Shown in pieces: positions 42,618 through 55,500 of a stretch of 64,000 bases of DNA. This DNA comes from Leptodontidium sp. MPI-SDFR-AT-0119. Taxonomy: Eukaryota; Ascomycota; Leotiomycetes; Helotiales; Leptodontidiaceae. The stretch covers positions 248,001-312,000 of the forward strand of contig JAHLEZ010000044.1 of NCBI GenBank assembly GCA_020726505.1. Direction: 5' to 3'. Position 1 is the stretch's first letter. Each line of letters begins with the position of its first letter. A model generated the notes under the pieces. It searched no databases and was not told the origin of the DNA. It saw nothing but the letters and a program-made list of their open reading frames with translations. A program made the translations under genes and the position numbers.

Positions 42618-43288
42618 GACAACTCTCCGAAAATGCTATGTGATTTGCTTAGTCACTGTGTAATTCAGTTCACCAGGAGTATGGGATAATCAATCAATCA
42701 ATCATCACTTCTCTTCTCTCGACCGCCGCGTGCGTTGTTCCTCTAGATACCAACCAGATACCAATCCCTAACGTGTATCCTTGTTGTCACGATCTCACGA
42801 GTACAACCTTCAAGATGCTGGCCGAAGACCAATCTCGTTTGCAAAAGATTGATGAGCTATAGGTCTCTAGCATTGTCATTGCAGCTTACCTACAATTCTT
42901 TTCCTAACGTGTGTCAGCGTCACCGATTTTAGCGAGCCTCACCAAACCCCTCAAATCCGCCCCAAATCCAAAGCAGGCACCTCACCCCGCCCTTTAACTA
43001 ATTATTAAAGCTTTAAAAAAAGTTAATATAATTGAAATTAAACATAGTATTAATACATACATCGATTTCTTTTATCCTTAAGATATAACGTAGAGGTGTA
43101 AATTATAAATAGGCGATTTTCAGCCTCGCGAGTTGGTTCTCGGTCGTAATTTAAGCCGCAAACCTACGATTTTGCCCCCCTCTTCTAACTCTACAAACAA
43201 GTTCTTAAGTAATATAAAAAATAGGGATAATTTAAGATTAACATATAATAATTAATTGCATGTAATTATTAGCTTAATTTAAGGTGTA

Positions 43289-46200
43289 ACGTCCATCCCT
43301 GTGTGCCGGAAAACCCTCCGTGCCGGAAAGTTTAGCCGGTACATTGACTTCAAGCATCGTAAAATCAGTGCACACTGTAATGTCTCTTGTATTTTCTTTT
43401 TAGTCAGATTCTATAGCCACTCCCAAATACCCTAAATGCCTCTGACTAAAATATCCACGTTCGCGTCGTCGCCCTACGTCTGATTTGCAAAGACTTTCTA
43501 ATTATATCATAACAGAGTTCTTTTACCACAGCTGCACTACTCAGCTTGCACCATCTGTAAAACTCATAAAAGGGTCTTAGCCGGATTCTTATGCCACCCA
43601 TGATGCGGGAGATCGTCAATAGCCTTGTGGCGGCGGCTGTGGCGTGCAGATTTATGCAAGATCGCCAGGCGGGCCGGTACCTCGGATCGAAGCGAGGGCA
43701 GCACTTCTACGCTTTCGACCACATTTCCCCCTGCCCTTGATGACCTCCTTTGCCTCGCTATAACAGGTATAGTTCTACGGATAATAGTTCTACGGATAAC
43801 AGGCGAGGCGTGATGAGTTGCATTACTATTAATTAGACACCTGGTGTACCGAAAAGTCGAGCAGCACTGAGCTTTAGGACCTAATCCTAACAAATAAACA
43901 ATGTCTGAGCGCAAGCAAGATGGAAGTCAAGACGTCATCCGAACCTGCCAAGTAACAACAGCCAATGCCCCAAGTGAAACAAAATACGCAGCAATTGTCC
44001 AAGCACTCTGCAAATCCCTCTCCACAACACTCCAGCACACTCCGAAAATAGTCCCGACCACCACTACTATCCCAAACAGAAATGTCACAATGACAGATGG
44101 ATCAGGAGTCTCTACAAATCGAAGTCCGTAGCCGATATTGATATCTTCGTTGTGAGGGTCCTTTGAGATAAATTTGAGCGGCTTGTCTCTCTTTTTAGGC
44201 AATTGGTCCAAATAGAAAGAGCCGGACTGGAGAGACGCGGTACATTTTGCCGTTAAAAGATGGACGAGATGGTCGGCAGCTATTGGGGGAACTATTTCCA
44301 GGGGCGGGGGCGGGGCAAAGTCGTAGTGCAGAGTATTGGATGGCACTGTGTCGGCTACCATGCGATCTACTGAGTCGTCTGGGAATGCTGTGAACTAGTT
44401 TGGTTTGGTAAGAATAATCTTCTTGCCTGTGCGTTATCTCTCACCTTAATGAATTCAATGCGTTTCAGCTTGAAAAGAATCAGATCTGTCCAAGTTCGTT
44501 GTGTCTTCCATGTTTTGTGCAGGAGTTGAAAGAGCCCCGCATCTTTCAGCTCGTTGTCTTCTTTATCTTTGCAGATGTGAAGCGGCTCGAGTTTTGTTAC
44601 TTTAGCATTAGGTCTTCTCTTGAGACAGAGATGAAGCCACCTGCATGTCACATCAGGGGTAGGTGAACACTGAATCGTAGCAAACCTCCTTGCTTTCGGC
44701 TTCAACTTTGCCCCATTGTTGTTAGCTTTCAAAGTCGAAATGCTACGGCCGACAGCTGCTACTTTGTTTCCAACAGCTGTCAGAAGTGCTCGCGATATTC
44801 CAGGTCCGGTTGTCGTTGGCTGGGCCTGAGTTACATACCCCGATCTCCGAAGGTTCTCAGCGTATGTCGCTACAGCACCAGGTCGAAATTCCCGAAAGTC
44901 GTCATGAGAAGTGTGACCGCAGATCTGAAGTGGTTCAGTGGAAACCTGGTAACAGATAAGTTTTTATATTTGGGGAACATACACATGTCCATTCCAACCT
45001 CACATATCCCGGCCCAAAAGGTTTTCTTAAGTATTCCGACAAATTCGACAAGACTGGGGGATTATTGGCAAACGAATTTTCTGTTAGTATCTGGTCCGGA
45101 GTTGATTCTGTAGGCGGACCACCATGGTTAATATTATCTTTACCTTCGAACACGATTTGATATTCTTCTTCTGCGGGAAAAAGTAGCACTTTCTCAGGAC
45201 TGTCGGCAGTGGCTTTATTTCTAGGACTGCCCTTCTCAGGATACAGAAACGATCGGAAGCGATCCTTCAATTTCTGCATAGCATTAGATGCAAGAAGCCA
45301 CTCTCTCAATGTACTTAGATTAGGGCGGTCATCAGGATCGCCATAATCGTCTTGATCACTGTCTTCCTCCGCTTGTGGTTGTAAGCTATTTTGTGTGCAC
45401 CCTGGTTGAAGGCTTCCGAGGTAATCTCGCAGCCTTTCTTCGCGCAAAGTATCTCCATCGTGACACGAGAGCTGGAGGGCGTCACTCGGATGAATTCTTT
45501 CGCGAAGTAATGCTGATACTTGTCTTGATCTTTGCCCAATAAACCTAGCAGCCTGTTCTTGTGGTGGTGTTTGCGCTTCGAGCAGCAGCTCTTTTGAGAA
45601 GGAGTGGAGTGCACGTCTGAAGTTCCTTGTAACCTTTTCTGACTGCAGCAATTTGAATGATTCGTCCAGAAGATCTCGAAGTTGCTGATCGTTTACAAGC
45701 AGGTTTACCATTTCTGTAGCACTATCCAGAACGATTGGTGCTATATCCGAAATTGAGGTCGCCGAGCTTGCCATCGTTGAGGCATTATAAGACTCCAAGG
45801 AGGCCACCGAGTAATCCGAGTCAGAATCATTAGTTGATGCAATTCGAAGAGACTGATGTTGTGTGATATGATCGAATGAAATCTGCCATGTAGAAATGAT
45901 GTCTTTATACGAGCTTAGCTCAGGACTTGTCTCCTTGAGCCTCGCCCGTGACTCCTCATACAAACGAAGATAATCCGAGAAACTCAACTCTGTTTGATCA
46001 ATGTATGCTCCAGCAGTAGCTAGTGCAAGTGGAAATCCATCCAATTTCTCTGCAAGCTTCATAGCATCAGGATCTAGTATTCAAAGTTAGAAAGTAATAT
46101 CAAATCCAAAACGTTCTTACCTGTTTGGCCTTCTCGTCTGGATACGGCCGACAGAATTTCAAGACTATCACGCACATCGATAAGCTTGCGAATCTGGATA

Positions 46201-48424
46201 GAATGACCAATTTTGACCTCAGATGACCGCGTTGTGATGATAATCGACCCTTGATATGATTCGGGAAGGAACTTTCTGATATCCACAGCTGCAGGATCCG
46301 CCTTGCCGGATAATTTAGGAGTATCGTAGTTATCGTAAATCATCAGCCATCGTATGTTATTAGGCAAACTCAGCCATGCCTTGACAAACTCAACCAGTTT
46401 GTCCAGGTTCTGGTTCGTTTCTTGATTGCTATCGGGGATAGCCAGCGGGTGTTCTCTTGATATCTGCTTAGCCAGCTTAGCAAAGCTCTGCTTCACAGAA
46501 TCCTCGTCTTTGATGTTCAGCCAAAATATTGCGGAATAATCGTCCTTGTGCCGTTTCGCATATGCAATACTGAGTTGTGTCTTCCCGATTCCCCCTAGCC
46601 CTTACAGAACAACTACTCGACGGGAGCCATCACCTGTGAGTGTCTTATGTATTTTCGAGAGCTCGTCTTCCCTAGCCACAAAGTGTTCGACGTCGAAAGC
46701 ATCGGAGAGGCTGAAGGTGACGGAGAAGTCCTTGCGGTTAGATCCTAGTACAGTCAGCAGCTTCCTTATTTCATGACAGAGAGTGGGACGTACCTCTCAA
46801 GGTCTTGTCAATCTCCTCTCGAAGTCGCGCCAATGCCCTGTCCTTCCCCTCACCGTAGATGAGTGGCATGTAAACGTCAAAAATTCCTAGCAGTGAATAT
46901 GCCTTGTCTTCTGCGTAAGTCGTCTCACGACATTCTGTCCACGACATTCGCTCAGCGATGCTGAAGTCAGACAAAGGGCTTCCTCGAAGGGCACCGGCTG
47001 GAACGCCAGTTACCTCGCAAATGTGTCGTTCTAGGGAGACCTTGTTGCCTAATAGCTCCCTATCTCTGCAGAAGAAGTCGACTGACGCCGGCGCAATAAG
47101 CTCTTGGAGCGTCCAGCCTCGTGTGAACCACGCGCTTTTCCGAAATGTCCATACCCAGTCCTCGTTAGACCCGTCCGCCGAATCATTTCCAGGTCGCGAA
47201 ACATCTGGCAGATAAACGTAGCACTTGGTCGCATCCTGGTACCAGCGAAACATCGAGTTGATAGCCTCTGCAAGCTCGGCGCTGCTCGATTTGTCGATGC
47301 AGCATGTGTCCACCCAGAAGTATTCCAATTTATCACGCCTGGCCTGATCTCCGCAGAACTGTATCTTGCCGTAGCCAGCCTTGCCTTTACTCGTGCCGGC
47401 TGCCAGATCCTTGAAAGTGACCTCCTCCGCTTCCCATCTGTGTGAAAGTATAGCATACTCGGGTATGTCGTCTTGAAAGAACTCAGTCAGGCGGAGGTTG
47501 CCATCGCCATCTAACTGTAGCAGACGCATTATTCCACTAGGTTCGAGGATCACAGAAGGAAAGATTCTCTGTAGTTGATAAGCCGTCGAAAAAGTATCGA
47601 TATAAAGTGAGGAGAAGGTTGGAGAAGATGTCGCGTTGAGGCTGCCGCACTCAGCTAGGCGGCAGCCTCGCGGCAACATTATCGTTGTACATGACTAGAA
47701 GCGCAAAAGACCAGCCAGCCGCGCAACCTCGAATTCTGGAAGGCATAGGAATAGGATAATCGAAACCACTTTCGATTAATTTGGTCTTATCGATGAAAAG
47801 AAAGCTGAAGTGATTGGAGAGTGGATGATAGAAATAGAGACCTACTATCGTGCATTTACCTTTATCTTTGGAGTTCGAACCTCTGACCTCGAATCTTGGG
47901 CACCTATTTAATCAGGCAACAGCTCTCCGTTGCTTCGGTCCAGTGATTACATAAGTGAGCCTACGGGCCATAGGTGACATTGTGGCACGTGCGGACTGTT
48001 CCCCACTAAGATCGTCATTCGCTTCGATCCGAGGTACCGAATCGCGTGGCGATCATGATAGATTTGCAAGCCACAGGAGCCGTAAGGCTAACAATGACTT
48101 CTCATATGGTCAGAGGGCTTAAGAGCTCGAATAGGATCCTTTTATAGCTATTGGAAGAACTGAGAGCCTAGAGATAAAGCGGCGATGAGAAAAAGTATAT
48201 TGCGCAACAAAATGAGACCCGTTGTAAATCAGCCGTAGCGGCGGTGACATAAATATAGTTTTCTGGTAAAAGAGGTTGAAAGTGTCTTAGAATAGCTATA
48301 GAATATAACCTGTAAAGCATTCCAGAGAATTACTATAGTTTATGTAGGTTCTATGATGCCTAAAATCAAAGTACCTGTTAGTTTTTCCGGCACGGAGGGT
48401 TTTCCGGCACGCAGGGATGCACGT
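43289..48424. mobile_element. E2: 5.1-kb TIR unit carrying a HET-NLR gene
   Basis: The left end begins ACGTCCATCCCTGTGTGCCG; the right end in reverse complement begins ACGTGCATCCCTGCGTGCCG. The match continues through GGAAAACCCTCCGTGCCGG with about two mismatches in 43 bases. Weaker inverted similarity extends several hundred bases inward, for example GGTACCTCGGATCGAAGCGA near 43678 against its complement near 48030. TA lies at 43287-43288 and 48425-48426. Only one gene is present (43927-47529), and no transposase frame was found. Ends and TA target resemble Tc1/mariner/Fot1-type elements, and the start ACGTCC recalls the MITE at 11223. The cargo gene has no role in transposition. Confidence 0.72.
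43927..47529 (-). pseudogene. HET / NB-ARC / membrane-module protein with one in-frame stop
   Basis: Five exons on the minus strand: 47529-46794, 46744-46121, 46073-44983, 44924-44445 and 44394-43927. All four introns (47-58 bp, GT-AG) keep frame, giving 1,132 codons. Residues 1-245 are a HET domain of the HET-E/D type (IPEYAILSHRW, LEYFWVDTCCIDKSSSAE, RGWTLQELIAP). Next is NB-ARC: P-loop GLGGIGKTQLS, Walker B WLMIYDNYDTP, GSIIITTRS and GFPLALA. It stops short of the usual ARC2 and repeats. From ~560 a fungal module follows: a serine-rich linker, WTCICGHTSHDDFREFRPGA, LFQLLHKTW, HYDFAPPPPLE and two membrane helices (SVIVTFLFGIVVVVG; AAYFVSLGALAVV). TAA at 46602-46604 (codon 293) precedes the P-loop and fits CAA to TAA. 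Everything else is open. Confidence 0.82.
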
Positions 48425-48926
48425 TAATTGTAAAGTAATATTCGGGGGCAAAATCGAGGGTTTGCGGCTCAAATTTGCGACCGAGAGCCAGCTTGCGAGG
48501 GCTCGCGAGGCTGAAAATGCCATTTTCGCCCTTTTGTAATTTACACCTTTAAATTACTTTTATAATACTTAAAAATATAATACATATACTAAAATTATGT
48601 TGAATTTTCATTATATTAACTTTTTTAAAAGCTTTAATAATTAGTTAAAGGGCGGGGGGAGGTGCCTCTTCGCTGCCTCCTCGCGAATTTGAAGGTTGGT
48701 GAGGCTCGCTAAAATCGGTGACGCTGACACACGTTAGGAAAAGAATTGTATGCGCCTAAGGCACCAACTCATCCAGAGAAATTGCGGGGTTCAATGCCCG
48801 ACCGTTACCTAACTGCTCGAATCTGAAGCTCACAAATACCAAATACCTACGAGTTCTCCCTTACCCCATGTATGTCCCAGTGCTGTGGCCCCCTAGTATC
48901 CCTCTTAACTAATAGATATTTTAAGA

Positions 48927-52553: not shown

Positions 52554-55500
52554 CTCGTCGGTTTCCTGACTTTTTTTGGAAAATTACCGACCTGCGCCAG
52601 CAGGTCGGAACCACCAACTTCGACATACCAGCAACTTCGACACGACCTTTTTGGCTTATTTAATTACTTTAAAAATCCAATTCTAGCTCGTTTGACTTGA
52701 TTTTTTAATAGAAAAATGCGCCGTAACTGAGAGTATAATTACCACACTAGTGCATTAGGGCTAGGGCTAGTTAATCATGCGTTGTTTTGAACTGAATATG
52801 GGTTTCGGGTGCAGATTTGGCAGGTCTTGGCACCTCGGCACGTCCCGCAGTTCATTGACAGGGGTGCAAATCGCGTCCGGATTTCCCCTCTTACACGTAA
52901 AAACTCGATTTATCCTACCCATATATATACGATTCAATCCAGACTACGAATTACGCCCACTATGGTCAAATCTACGCCTCAAATCAAGCATGGAGGGTCT
53001 AAGAAGAGCAAGAAGAAGTCTCCATTGGATGCTAGGATTGCTCGCATACGGAAGATGCCCAAATACAAGACCCCCGCCTATATGAGCCAGGAAGCTAGGA
53101 TTCAGGCTGCTTTGGCGGCATATGAGAACCCCGAGGACACCGATATTACCAGTCTACGTATTGCCGCTGGCGTTTTCCGTGGAGTTAGCTACTCTACGTT
53201 GAATAGTCGTTACAAGAAGAGCGATATTTCCAAGACGTTAGCTGAGAATGGGGGTCACAACAAGAAGTTGAATGAGGCTCAAGAGGCGTCTCTAATATGG
53301 TATATTGATACTGCTATTGAAAGAGGCTTTCCTATGAGATATGATATGATTGTTGCCGCTGCAACTATGATATTAAGTCTCTCCATGGAAATATTCCAGC
53401 GAATTGGACAGAATTGGGCCAGAAGATGGGTAGACAGAATGGACGTTACTGGCCGATATCATGCTTTACGGACTACTCCAATGGACCAAAAGCGTAAAGA
53501 TTGTATGACGATTGAAGATATCACTGGTTGCTTTGAGAAGTTAGCTGCGGTAATGGCCAAATACTTAATACATTAGAAAGATATCTTCAATATGGACGAA
53601 ATTGGCTTTAGGGTCGGGTGCATCAGTAGCACAACGGTTATTACGCACAAGAACATCCGTAAAGTACGTTTTCCTACTAAAAAACAGCTTATCCTAATGA
53701 CTGAGTGCGTACTGACTGTTTTAGGTCTTCACACGTGACCCGGTCGACCGCGAGTCTGTGTCAGTCATTGAGTGTATCTCTGCGGCTGGCTATGCCATTG
53801 ATTGTTACATCATTATGCCGGGGGCTGTCTACCTAGAGAAGATGTTTAACAACAACCTACCACCAGGCACAAAGATCTCTTGTAGTGAAAAGGGGTACTC
53901 AAGTGACGAGCTCGCATTAGAGTGGCTCAAACACTTTGACCAACAAACCAAAGGCCGCCAACAAGGCTAGTGGCGTCTCTTGATATTTGATGGCCATGGT
54001 AGTCATATGACCTATGAGTTTATCTCTAGGTGTGAGCAACTAAAGATTATACCTTTTTGTTTAATTGCTCACTCAACACATGCCACACAACCACTCGACG
54101 TTGCTTGTTTCCAGTCCGAAAAGCATTGGCATGGCCGAGCAATTGAAGATAGAATTAGAGACGGTTGCAACTCCTTCACCAAATACACCTTTCTTCAATG
54201 CCTTAATCAGATCAGAGCCAAAACCTTCAAGAAAGAGACAATTCAGTCAGCCTTTAGGCGCACTGGCATATGGCCATTAAACCCGGATGTCATTATCACA
54301 GCTTTTAAGCTTACCCAGGATACTCAAATAGGCGATAAAGATATGGGCGGACGGGTGTATAACCATACCCCGGGCAATCCAGCCACGGCAATTAATGTCC
54401 CTGCATCCAACGAGCATATACCACGCTGGATACCAACTAATAACGAATTCTGGGAGGCCGAGACTACGTCAGACGAAGAATACGACTATATTCCGTGGAT
54501 TCAAGATGATAGAGCTTTTAATGATAAGCCAGAGGACAGAATGGAGCTCCCACAGCTCCCACGTGACGGAGATGTTGATATTACAACAGATTTGATAGCT
54601 CCATTAGCAAGCTCTCATATCGACGAATTGCTAGACGTGGTGGCGACTCTAGAGCAACCTATACAGCTTAGAGATCTAGAAGATTACGGGAATTATGGGC
54701 TCGAAGGTACAGCGGAAGATCCACGTTGGTATAGAAAAACGCCATTTTTTGATACCCCATATGGAGCTAAAGGAATCAATGCACACGCCGAATTTCTTGA
54801 TACCTACGAAGATATATTATCGTCACCATTAAGGCGTCTCTCTAATAAGAAGTTCCGTAAATGTAGCACAGTTAATGCTATCATGGCCGACGCCGCGCGC
54901 CAAGAGCTCACTTCTACGGTTCCAAACAGTACCTGGGGAAGCAATTCCCTTGTGCTAAATGACGAAGATGGTGCTAAGAGAGTGAAACCTCGCGGTGGGG
55001 GCCGCGTAATCTCCTCTGGAGAAGGGTTGCGAATCATCGGCGAGAGGAATGATGCTGCCCAGGAGTCCAAACTTGCGAAGCTTCAAAGAGAGGCGAATAT
55101 TGCTGGAAATATATTGAAGTTAGAAGAGGAGAGAGTTGCTAAAGCTCTAGCTCGACAGCGAAAAAGAGAGGAGAAAGAAACTGCAAAGGTTCAAAAGAGA
55201 ACGGAAAAAGCACGCATCCGAGAAGAGAAAGCTCAGGCTAAAATACAACATAAACTTGACAAAGCTATGAGGTTACAAGCGTTGATTAGTACTGGAAAGA
55301 AGCCTAGAGGTCGGAAATCGACTACAATTAAAGAGGAAGAGGCCACACAACAAGAGCCTGTAGTTATGGCCGCATCCCAAAGACCAATTCGCGCCAGGAG
55401 ACCAACACAAAAAGCGATTGAGATACTTAGCGACGACGAGCAGGAAGATGGCAGTGATATTGAGAGCCCCCTAGAGTCAGATTTGTCTGCTGATTCCGAT

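What the first reader, a model, noticed from the sequence alone, without database searches (positions are those of the whole stretch)
43289..48424. A TA-flanked inverted-repeat unit whose cargo is a HET/NLR-type gene
The 5,136-bp segment has TIRs matching at about 41 of 43 outer positions and TA on both sides. It contains one gene and no transposase. The gene belongs to the fungal non-self-recognition class. Non-autonomous Tc1/mariner-like elements normally carry no cargo of this kind, so a mobile immunity gene would be notable.
Basis: partly seen in the sequence, partly recalled or inferred. Interest (0 to 1): 0.9.

Follow-up and report, generated by a model that had tools for sequence, protein, structure and literature searches.

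The report
Transposon family carrying fungal immune genes
The flagged segment is a jumping DNA element that carries a (now broken) fungal self/non-self recognition gene, and it belongs to a larger family in the same genome in which several copies with a transposase carry such a gene too, so part of this fungus's immune-gene repertoire appears to travel inside small transposons.

Summary
Observation confirmed. Window 43289-48424 is a TA-flanked unit whose outer TIR bases match at 39 of 41 (41 of 43 with the TA). Removing it restores the repeat it landed in: 3 of 3 fetched siblings align through the junction with one TA. Its gene encodes HET and a weak NB-ARC match, with an in-frame stop before the P-loop.

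It is not a one-off. The TIR motif occurs 99 times, control 0. Of 29 convergent TIR pairs, 18 are non-nested and 3-9 kb; 15 hold a HET and/or NLR gene (12 of the 14 with both ends complete). C14b and C37a hold an open pogo-type DDE_1 transposase frame and, 559-563 bp away and divergent, a HET-NB-ARC-TPR gene, though each is damaged somewhere. Another TIR subfamily repeats this with HET-WD40. The genome is probably Leptodontidium sp. MPI-SDFR-AT-0119.

Best reading: a compact transposon family with HET-NLR genes as usual cargo; the window copy is a non-autonomous member with a broken gene. Nine searches of the held library listed no paper describing this.

The parts
43287..43288 (.). left flanking TA (target-site duplication)
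   Evidence: sequence; a single TA at the junction column in 3 of 3 sibling repeats
43289..43366 (+). left terminal inverted repeat (78 bp compared; strongest in the outer 41)
   Evidence: 39 of 43, 51 of 60, 64 of 78 identical to the right end; 83% over 78 nt (I3)
43297..43329 (+). two tandem 16-17-bp motifs (CCCT.YGTGCCGGAAA) at TIR positions 9-41, possible transposase-binding sites (inferred)
   Evidence: pairs I14 and I15
48347..48424 (-). right terminal inverted repeat
   Evidence: 81.7% over 71 bp and 83.6% over 67 bp to TIRs of two transposase-bearing relatives
48383..48416 (-). two tandem 17-bp motifs inside the right TIR
   Evidence: family D6
48425..48426 (.). right flanking TA
45864..47712 (-). 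block homologous (81.5% DNA identity over 1,878 aligned bases) to the upstream region, HET and NB-ARC part of the NLR gene of element C14b
   Evidence: win_rc 715-2563 vs L073 3609-5473
46794..47529 (-). NLR gene exon 1 (ATG at 47529); HET domain at about 47457-47209
   Evidence: PF06985 E 1.6e-11; exon model by GT-AG and homology
46745..46793 (-). predicted intron 1 (49 nt)
   Evidence: model, no RNA evidence
46121..46744 (-). NLR gene exon 2, NB-ARC part; P-loop GLGGIGKT at 46601-46578
   Evidence: PF00931 22.0 bits, under the cut-off of 23.5; 84.9% identical to C14b over 212 codons
46602..46604 (-). in-frame TAA stop, codon 293 of the model, directly before the P-loop
46074..46120 (-). predicted intron 2 (47 nt)
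44935..46080 (-). open frame with the end of the NB-ARC part and, from about 45863 on, a C-terminal module without a Pfam name
   Evidence: no Pfam hit; other matches in this genome only 25-39% identical; ten proteins elsewhere 48-86% identical, four of six read keep the same NB-ARC-to-C-terminus join
44367..44963 (-). next open frame, probably the same C-terminus, by eye similar to the ends of P0246 and P0248
   Evidence: splice pattern not modelled
43927..44394 (-). last open frame with a hydrophobic stretch; whether it belongs to the gene is not shown
   Evidence: not seen in P0246 or P0248
42891..43286 (.). left part of the older ~720-bp foldback repeat that the unit inserted into
48427..48750 (.). 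right part of the same older repeat

Best explanation
The segment is a non-autonomous member of a family of compact cut-and-paste DNA transposons of the pogo/Fot1 kind (Tc1/mariner). In this family a HET-domain NLR gene (fungal heterokaryon-incompatibility type) is the usual cargo. Transposase-bearing relatives hold the transposase and the NLR gene back to back in divergent orientation between long TIRs. The window copy keeps TIRs, NLR promoter region and NLR gene but lacks the transposase. It was presumably moved in trans by the transposase of a relative and inserted at a TA inside an older repeat. Its NLR frame has since acquired an in-frame stop. SHOWN: TIRs, the TA, the single-TA pre-insertion site, the multicopy family, HET/NLR cargo in 15 of 18 pairs, transposase plus HET gene inside one TIR pair (C14b, L080), low dN/dS of the HET exons. 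INFERRED: trans-mobilisation, ongoing activity, expression, any immune function of the cargo, and that a fully intact autonomous copy exists.
For: (1) Insertion: with the unit and one TA removed, the flanks align without a break to 3 of 3 sibling repeats; TA sits at the junction in all three; 164/201, 158/191 and 160/191 identities within about 100 bp. (2) Family: 99 TIR motifs vs 0 control; 131 distinct TIR ends and 29 convergent pairs within 15 kb. (3) Cargo: 24 of 150 listed HET matches have a TIR end within 2 kb upstream, 23 of them pointing inward, at 549-1,558 bp; with TIRs placed at random in their contigs the inward count averaged 0.61, maximum 4 in 1,000 runs. Of 18 non-nested pairs of 3-9 kb, 15 hold a HET and/or NLR gene; 12 of 18 hold one of the 150 listed HET matches, against 0.2 expected by area. 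(4) Transposase and NLR together: C14b (7,920 bp, both TIRs) and C37a hold an open DDE_1 frame and a divergent HET-NB-ARC-TPR gene (DDE_1 shown by Pfam for C37a and C14a, for C14b by 93% identity to C14a); L080 repeats this with another TIR subfamily, both ends present, and HET-WD40; 5 of 21 family transposase matches have a HET start divergent within 321-563 bp. (5) The window block is 81.5% identical to C14b over promoter, HET and NB-ARC. (6) Uninterrupted NLR models: C37a 1,126 aa, C15a 1,251, C18a 1,240, C14c 1,444. (7) dN/dS 0.10-0.37 for HET exons of 11 copies (52 of 55 pairs computable) and 0.11-0.17 for four transposases.
Against: The window's gene has a stop codon and the copy has no transposase, so this copy shows no activity. 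No relative in hand is intact throughout on the main TIR type: C14b's transposase frame lacks the first 46 residues of C14a's and its start region is inverted, and its NLR model ends at 459 aa; C37a has full frames but its left repeat is matched only from position 118 and no TIR tip was found there; C14a and C13t have no right end found. C2a leaves its WD40 frame near the 3' end. 16 of 21 family transposase matches have no HET start within 1.9 kb. Many HET paralogs have no TIR that I found: association falls from 16 of the 20 best matches to 24 of 60. Four of the 18 pairs have an incomplete left end (C2b, C12, C14c, C37a). Three of 18 hold no HET/NLR that I saw: C34b (VPS13-like), C69 (C2H2 plus WD40), C12 (only its right 1.5 kb seen). 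dN/dS over old divergences does not prove selection since the genes entered transposons. The HET list was drawn by similarity to an element-borne HET and capped at 150 of 366 candidates, which favours association and lowers the area expectation. One genome only.
Confidence: 0.86

Rival explanations
1. Gene-capture vehicle without partnership: a pogo-like family with permissive ends repeatedly picks up host genes (as Pack-type elements do), and HET/NLR genes dominate only because they are numerous and lie in repeat-rich regions. The window element is one such capture.
For: Some pairs carry other things: VPS13-like in C34b, C2H2-WD40 in C69, a different HET plus a piggyBac-like fragment (the latter by eye) in C20, a PigL_N gene plus TPR NLR in C13b. 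Cargo and transposase histories disagree: C14a and C14b transposases differ by dS 0.28 while their HET exons are saturated (pS 0.79). The window C-terminus has no close paralog in the genome. 16 of 21 transposase matches have no HET close by.
Against: The same HET subfamily sits at a narrow range of distances and in one orientation from the TIR in 23 of 24 cases. The divergent transposase-HET arrangement recurs in two TIR subfamilies whose transposases are about 55% identical. 16 of the 20 closest HET paralogs are element-associated.
Confidence: 0.3
2. Accidental flanking: two MITE-like insertions on either side of a resident NLR gene give the look of a unit, and nothing moved as a block.
For: The TIR family has many single ends (131 ends but only 29 convergent pairs), and short repeats are common here.
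Against: The whole unit interrupts another repeat family, and removing it restores that repeat with one TA in 3 of 3 siblings. Inward orientation and spacing recur across the family. Transposase and NLR lie together between TIRs.
Confidence: 0.03
3. A fragment of a larger cargo element (Starship or another composite) whose small inner element happens to carry the NLR.
For: Starships are reported to carry HET and NACHT genes (PMC9594970, passages read).
Against: Unit of 5.1 kb with its own TIRs and TA; Pfam on its six ORF pieces shows only HET and NB-ARC; the relatives with a transposase carry DDE_1. The surroundings were not searched for a captain gene.
Confidence: 0.03

Closest known systems
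Fot1-like / pogo-family Tc1/mariner transposons of fungi (PMC7325037, passages read; that Fot1 itself uses DD35D is recalled)
   Same: TA target, TIRs, DDE_1 transposase with an HTH_Tnp_Tc5 match, and 35 residues between the second and third D in five aligned relatives
   Different: Typical members carry only the transposase (general knowledge); here TIRs reach about 420-940 bp, elements reach 8 kb, and a second, NLR gene is present
Starship giant transposons (PMC9594970, passages read; search listings)
   Same: mobile fungal elements with HET/NACHT genes among their cargo
   Different: tyrosine-recombinase captain and many genes; here a DDE transposase in relatives, TIRs, and one NLR gene in 3-8 kb
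ToxhAT (14-kb hAT element; PMC6737239, passages read)
   Same: a TIR DNA transposon in fungi that carries an NLR-class gene (patatin-TPR) as cargo: the nearest precedent
   Different: hAT superfamily, one element with several mixed cargo genes; here a pogo-like family with over a hundred TIR ends and recurrent HET-NLR cargo
HNWD / het-d, het-e NLR genes of Podospora anserina (PMC1805685, PMC12222747, PMC9262711; passages read)
   Same: HET-NACHT-WD40 architecture with near-identical repeats, as in elements C2a, C18a and C14c
   Different: in the passages read, not described as lying inside TIR elements; the window's own gene is HET-NB-ARC with another C-terminus
HET genes near repeats in Pyrenochaeta lycopersici (PMC6034849, passages read)
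   Same: expansion of HET genes, 42 of them annotated close to transposable elements
   Different: proximity only; no element carrying the gene is described in the passages read

Membership tests
pogo/Fot1-like Tc1/mariner transposon | TA target-site duplication | tested here: met
   TA on both sides and a single TA in 3 of 3 pre-insertion siblings; 97 of 99 TIR motifs start with TA by my count, whose pattern included TA
pogo/Fot1-like Tc1/mariner transposon | terminal inverted repeats | tested here: met
   39 of the outer 41 positions; about 420-bp ends in C14b
pogo/Fot1-like Tc1/mariner transposon | own DDE_1 transposase in this copy | tested here: not met
   no transposase domain in six ORF pieces of the window unit; hence non-autonomous
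pogo/Fot1-like Tc1/mariner transposon | DDE_1 plus HTH_Tnp_Tc5 transposase in relatives with matching TIRs | tested here: met
   L069 and L075 DDE_1 108 bits each, L076 113.5; HTH_Tnp_Tc5 over its cut-off (22.2) only in L076 (27.6), under it in L069 (19.3) and L075 (21.4); L080 (other TIR type) DDE_1 101.6 with no HTH hit listed
pogo/Fot1-like Tc1/mariner transposon | DD35D catalytic spacing | tested here: met
   MDETG, DGFGTH, QPCD with 35 residues between the last two D in 5 of 5 aligned transposases, counted by eye
pogo/Fot1-like Tc1/mariner transposon | placement within the pogo clade by a transposase tree | not tested
   no tree was built; the assignment rests on Pfam domains and motif spacing
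HET-NLR (HNWD-type non-self recognition gene) | HET domain | tested here: met
   PF06985 E 1.6e-11, 45.2 bits over cut-off 22.5
HET-NLR (HNWD-type non-self recognition gene) | NACHT or NB-ARC nucleotide-binding domain | tested here: inconclusive
   window NB-ARC 22.0 bits, below the cut-off of 23.5; homologous segment of C37a 37 bits; P-loop present after a stop codon
HET-NLR (HNWD-type non-self recognition gene) | C-terminal TPR or WD40 repeats | tested here: not met
   no repeat family hit in the window pieces; present in C37a and C14b, C2a, C14c; seen in the translations of C15a and C18a
HET-NLR (HNWD-type non-self recognition gene) | uninterrupted reading frame | tested here: not met
   TAA at codon 293
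HET-NLR (HNWD-type non-self recognition gene) | triggers incompatibility or cell death | not testable with these tools
   needs an experiment
Starship | tyrosine-recombinase (DUF3435) captain inside the element | tested here: not met
   Pfam on the unit's six ORF pieces at E <= 0.01 lists only HET and NB-ARC
hAT cargo element (ToxhAT-like) | hAT transposase; 8-bp target duplication (recalled) | tested here: not met
   TA duplication; relatives encode DDE_1

The most novel reading that the evidence does not exclude
The NLR is not a passenger but part of the transposon's strategy: a transposon-encoded recognition system. The element carries its own HET-NLR, diversified by repeat turnover and by swapping of nucleotide-binding and repeat domains between copies. 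Hosts, nuclei or rival elements that lack or differ in it trigger HET-mediated death at hyphal fusion, which favours spread or retention of the element. Such transposons would then be a main engine behind the birth, shuffling and spread of fungal allorecognition NLRs, a eukaryotic counterpart of defence genes carried on bacterial mobile elements.
Probability: 0.22. Interest if true: 0.96.

Novelty: new variant of a known kind. Interest (0 to 1): 0.83.

Why it matters
Fungal NLR and HET repertoires differ greatly between relatives, and how they expand and move is an open question. A small TIR transposon family in which transposase-bearing copies also carry the NLR gene gives a direct, testable mechanism. 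It predicts NLR presence/absence differences with TA footprints between strains, and NLR relatives at unrelated loci sharing breakpoints. It would also mean that gene annotations which mask transposons can keep the NLR and miss its vehicle. Elements C2a, C18a and C14c carry the HET-NACHT-WD40 architecture of the classical incompatibility genes, so the link to allorecognition is specific.

Tried and rejected
Chance TIRs: rejected by 99 vs 0 control matches. Composite of two MITEs around a resident gene: rejected for the window by the pre-insertion site. First empty-site alignment: the host repeat was aligned in the wrong orientation, so its middle did not match; redone with the reverse complement. 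Right end of the transposase-bearing element C14a: not found up to C14:160500; candidate end C14:163771 not followed. Other species: no DNA of other fungi could be searched; comparing by eye the contig lengths and locus tags of transposase hits and NLR hits gave no shared contig in the 120 rows listed for each (of 853 and 3,741). Literature: nine searches listed no paper that, by title and start of abstract, describes a pogo-like family with HET-NLR cargo; I saw passages of seven papers. Subscription journals and preprints are mostly not held, and one wanted paper was not held. PMC4986451 (fungal NLR survey) has no word beginning 'transpos', and PMC6416283 (transposons in fungal genes) has no HET, NACHT, heterokaryon or NLR as whole words. 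No structure prediction was run and no tree was built.

Rows left out before counts: of 29 convergent pairs I kept 18. The 11 left out are eight over 9 kb (C2:1599785-1613619, C14:151815-163771, C14:171110-184967, C14:225325-238739, C15:745902-758503, C25:109551-123533, C25:336797-347408, C37:255525-268726), one under 3 kb (C14:161402-163771), and two outer versions of pairs already counted (C15:431611-439327, C34:815138-821889). Of 71 transposase matches I passed 21 to. One search reported 153 HET matches, of which the 150 listed were used and the first 60. In one search, contig lengths were known for 22 contigs; for the others the largest coordinate seen served as length.


Full report
WHAT WAS CHECKED. 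The unit at 43289-48424 is real. It is bounded by TA (43287-43288 and 48425-48426) and its ends are inverted repeats that agree at 39 of the first 43 bases (39 of 41), 51 of 60 and 64 of 78. TIR positions 9-41 hold two tandem motifs of 16-17 bases, which may be transposase-binding sites (inferred).

INSERTION AS A BLOCK. The sequence on both sides of the unit is one repeat of about 720 bp with long inverted arms, with further copies in the genome (40 scored matches of one arm). Three siblings were fetched. When the unit and one TA are removed and the flanks joined, the result aligns to all three through the junction, with TA at the junction column in 3 of 3 and 164/201, 158/191 and 160/191 identities within about 100 bp. 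An earlier try in the wrong orientation failed in the middle. This is a clean pre-insertion site and shows that the 5.1 kb entered as one block at a TA.

THE GENE. On the minus strand from 47529 a model with two short introns reads HET domain (PF06985, 1.6e-11), then NB-ARC (PF00931, 22.0 bits, just under the cut-off), then a C-terminal module with no Pfam name. Codon 293 is TAA, directly before the P-loop. Up to about 45864 the DNA is 81.5% identical over 1,878 bases to element C14b. Beyond that point the C-terminus has only 25-39% identical matches elsewhere in this genome, but ten unnamed proteins from other sources match it at 48-86%. Of six read, P0241, P0242, P0246 and P0248 start in the same NB-ARC tail and keep the same join, P0249 starts with another N-terminus, and P0250 has a HET domain in front. 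So the join is shared with other organisms and the stop is probably a later change in this copy (inference).

THE FAMILY. The TIR motif with TA occurs 99 times against 0 for the reversed control, and two longer DNA queries found 41 and 42 matches. Merged, these give 131 ends and 29 convergent pairs within 15 kb. A HET exon of the family was searched in the genome (366 candidates, 150 scored). Of the 150 matches listed, 24 have a TIR end within 2 kb upstream, and 23 of these point inward at 549-1,558 bp. Random placing of TIRs within contigs 1,000 times gave an inward mean of 0.61 and a maximum of 4. The list was drawn by likeness to an element-borne HET, so it favours association. Of the best 20 matches 16 have an inward TIR within 5 kb upstream or a divergent family transposase; of 60 it is 24.

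CENSUS OF PAIRS. Eighteen of the 29 pairs are non-nested and 3-9 kb long; in 14 both outer ends are complete, and in four the left end is only part of the repeat (C2b, C12, C14c, C37a). Fifteen of 18 (12 of the 14) hold a HET and/or NLR gene: C39w (window), C14b, C37a, C2a, C2b, C13b, C14c, C15a, C15b, C18a, C20, C24, C26a, C34a, C45. Of these, 13 were read over their length (C26a with a 10-base gap); C2b and C45 are known from a HET match near one end. C13b has a TPR NLR and a PigL_N gene but no HET seen. C15b and C20 carry HET genes of other subfamilies. C34a and C45 are decayed. The other three pairs are C34b (a VPS13-like stretch), C69 (C2H2, by eye, plus seven WD40 stretches) and C12 (only the right 1.5 kb seen). 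C2a, C18a and C14c are HET-NACHT-WD40, the architecture of the Podospora het-d/het-e genes; C15a, C14b and C37a are HET-NB-ARC-TPR (some by likeness rather than Pfam). Simple gene models, which may read past a small gap as an intron, are uninterrupted in C37a (1,126 aa), C15a (1,251), C18a (1,240) and C14c (1,444). C14b stops at 459 aa although its TPR frame is open further on, C2a leaves its WD40 frame near the end, C24 gives 396 aa, and C26a 274 aa of HET only.

THE TRANSPOSASE. A DDE_1 transposase of this family is open in C14a (622 aa), C14b (581), C37a (648), C13t (605) and C37b in L080 (584). The DD35D spacing is kept in all five. HTH_Tnp_Tc5 passes its cut-off in C13t, is below it in C14a and C37a, and is not listed for C37b. 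In C14b the transposase and the HET-NB-ARC-TPR gene lie between two TIRs of about 420 bp in a 7,920-bp element, but its transposase frame lacks the first 46 residues of C14a's and the start region is inverted. C37a has full-length frames for both genes, but its left repeat is matched only from position 118 on and no TIR tip was found in the 327 bases before it. C14a and C13t have one TIR each in the DNA read. Across the genome 5 of 21 family transposase matches have a HET start divergent within 321-563 bp; 16 do not. L080 has another TIR subfamily (715 of 943 aligned bases identical between its two ends, TA at both) with an open transposase frame and a 568-aa HET-WD40 frame. That TIR has two more matches in the genome, its own other end and C20:403543-403656, which lies 3.2 kb upstream of, and points toward, the HET match at C20:399819-400493. 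So the arrangement is older than the split of these TIR subfamilies, or arose twice.

SELECTION AND EXCHANGE. Pairwise dN/dS is 0.10-0.37 for HET exons of 11 copies (52 of 55 pairs computable) and 0.11-0.17 for four transposases, which fits constraint but does not date it to life inside the transposon. C14a and C14b transposases differ by dS 0.28 while their HET exons are saturated at synonymous sites (pS 0.79), and C14a has a NACHT domain where C14b's kin have NB-ARC. So cargo has been exchanged between elements since these transposases split (inference).

HOST AND SPREAD. Three NLR proteins in the protein collection lie on contigs of 1,366,103, 2,683,090 and 1,163,561 bases, exactly the lengths of C13, C2 and C14, and belong to Leptodontidium sp. 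MPI-SDFR-AT-0119, a Helotiales fungus. Relatives of the transposase (853 proteins at E <= 1e-30, 120 listed) include Lachnellula, Pseudogymnoascus, Botrytis, Bipolaris, Pyrenophora, Alternaria, Curvularia and Exserohilum. Whether they sit beside NLR genes there could not be tested.

KNOWN SYSTEMS. Starships carry HET and NACHT genes among many others (PMC9594970, passages), and ToxhAT, a 14-kb hAT element, carries one patatin-TPR NLR (PMC6737239, passages). So NLR cargo on fungal mobile elements has precedents. A compact multicopy pogo-like family with HET-NLR as recurrent cargo was not found in nine searches. Hence 'new variant of a known kind'.

VERDICT. Observation confirmed; interpretation supported and enlarged. 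The main weaknesses are that one genome was examined, that no main-type copy in hand is intact throughout, and that function and movement in real time are inferred.

Noticed in passing
window 42891-43286 and 48427-48750: Older foldback repeat of about 720 bp with long inverted arms, 40 scored matches of one arm in the genome; it served as the insertion target
   Followed up: partly
window about 53743-54300 (C39:301743-302300): Another DDE_1 transposase frame (612 aa, one TAG inside), 36% identical to the family transposase
   Followed up: no
L080 3365-8577 (C37:343964-349176): Another TIR subfamily (starts TAAGAGACGTCC or TAAGAGAGGTCC, ends about 940 bp long) with transposase and divergent HET-WD40 gene; few copies
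   Followed up: yes
C20:399819-403656: A HET match with an L080-type TIR 3.2 kb upstream pointing toward it: a possible second member of that subfamily
   Followed up: no
L076/L003 (C13:1070659-1079600) and C13:1033461-1039832: Related elements with a TPR NLR and a PigL_N gene instead of HET; the first also has an open transposase frame
   Followed up: partly
C34:818202-821889: Family TIR pair holding a VPS13_VAB-like coding stretch: possible capture of an ordinary host gene
   Followed up: no
C69:186561-191901: Family TIR pair holding an ORF of C2H2 fingers (by eye) plus seven WD40 stretches
   Followed up: no
transposase and HET matches genome-wide: By eye, stops in decayed copies are mostly TAG and TAA, seldom TGA, as expected from RIP-like mutation
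   Followed up: no
contig C14 about 150-260 kb and C37: Clustering of family ends and HET genes, several nested
   Followed up: no
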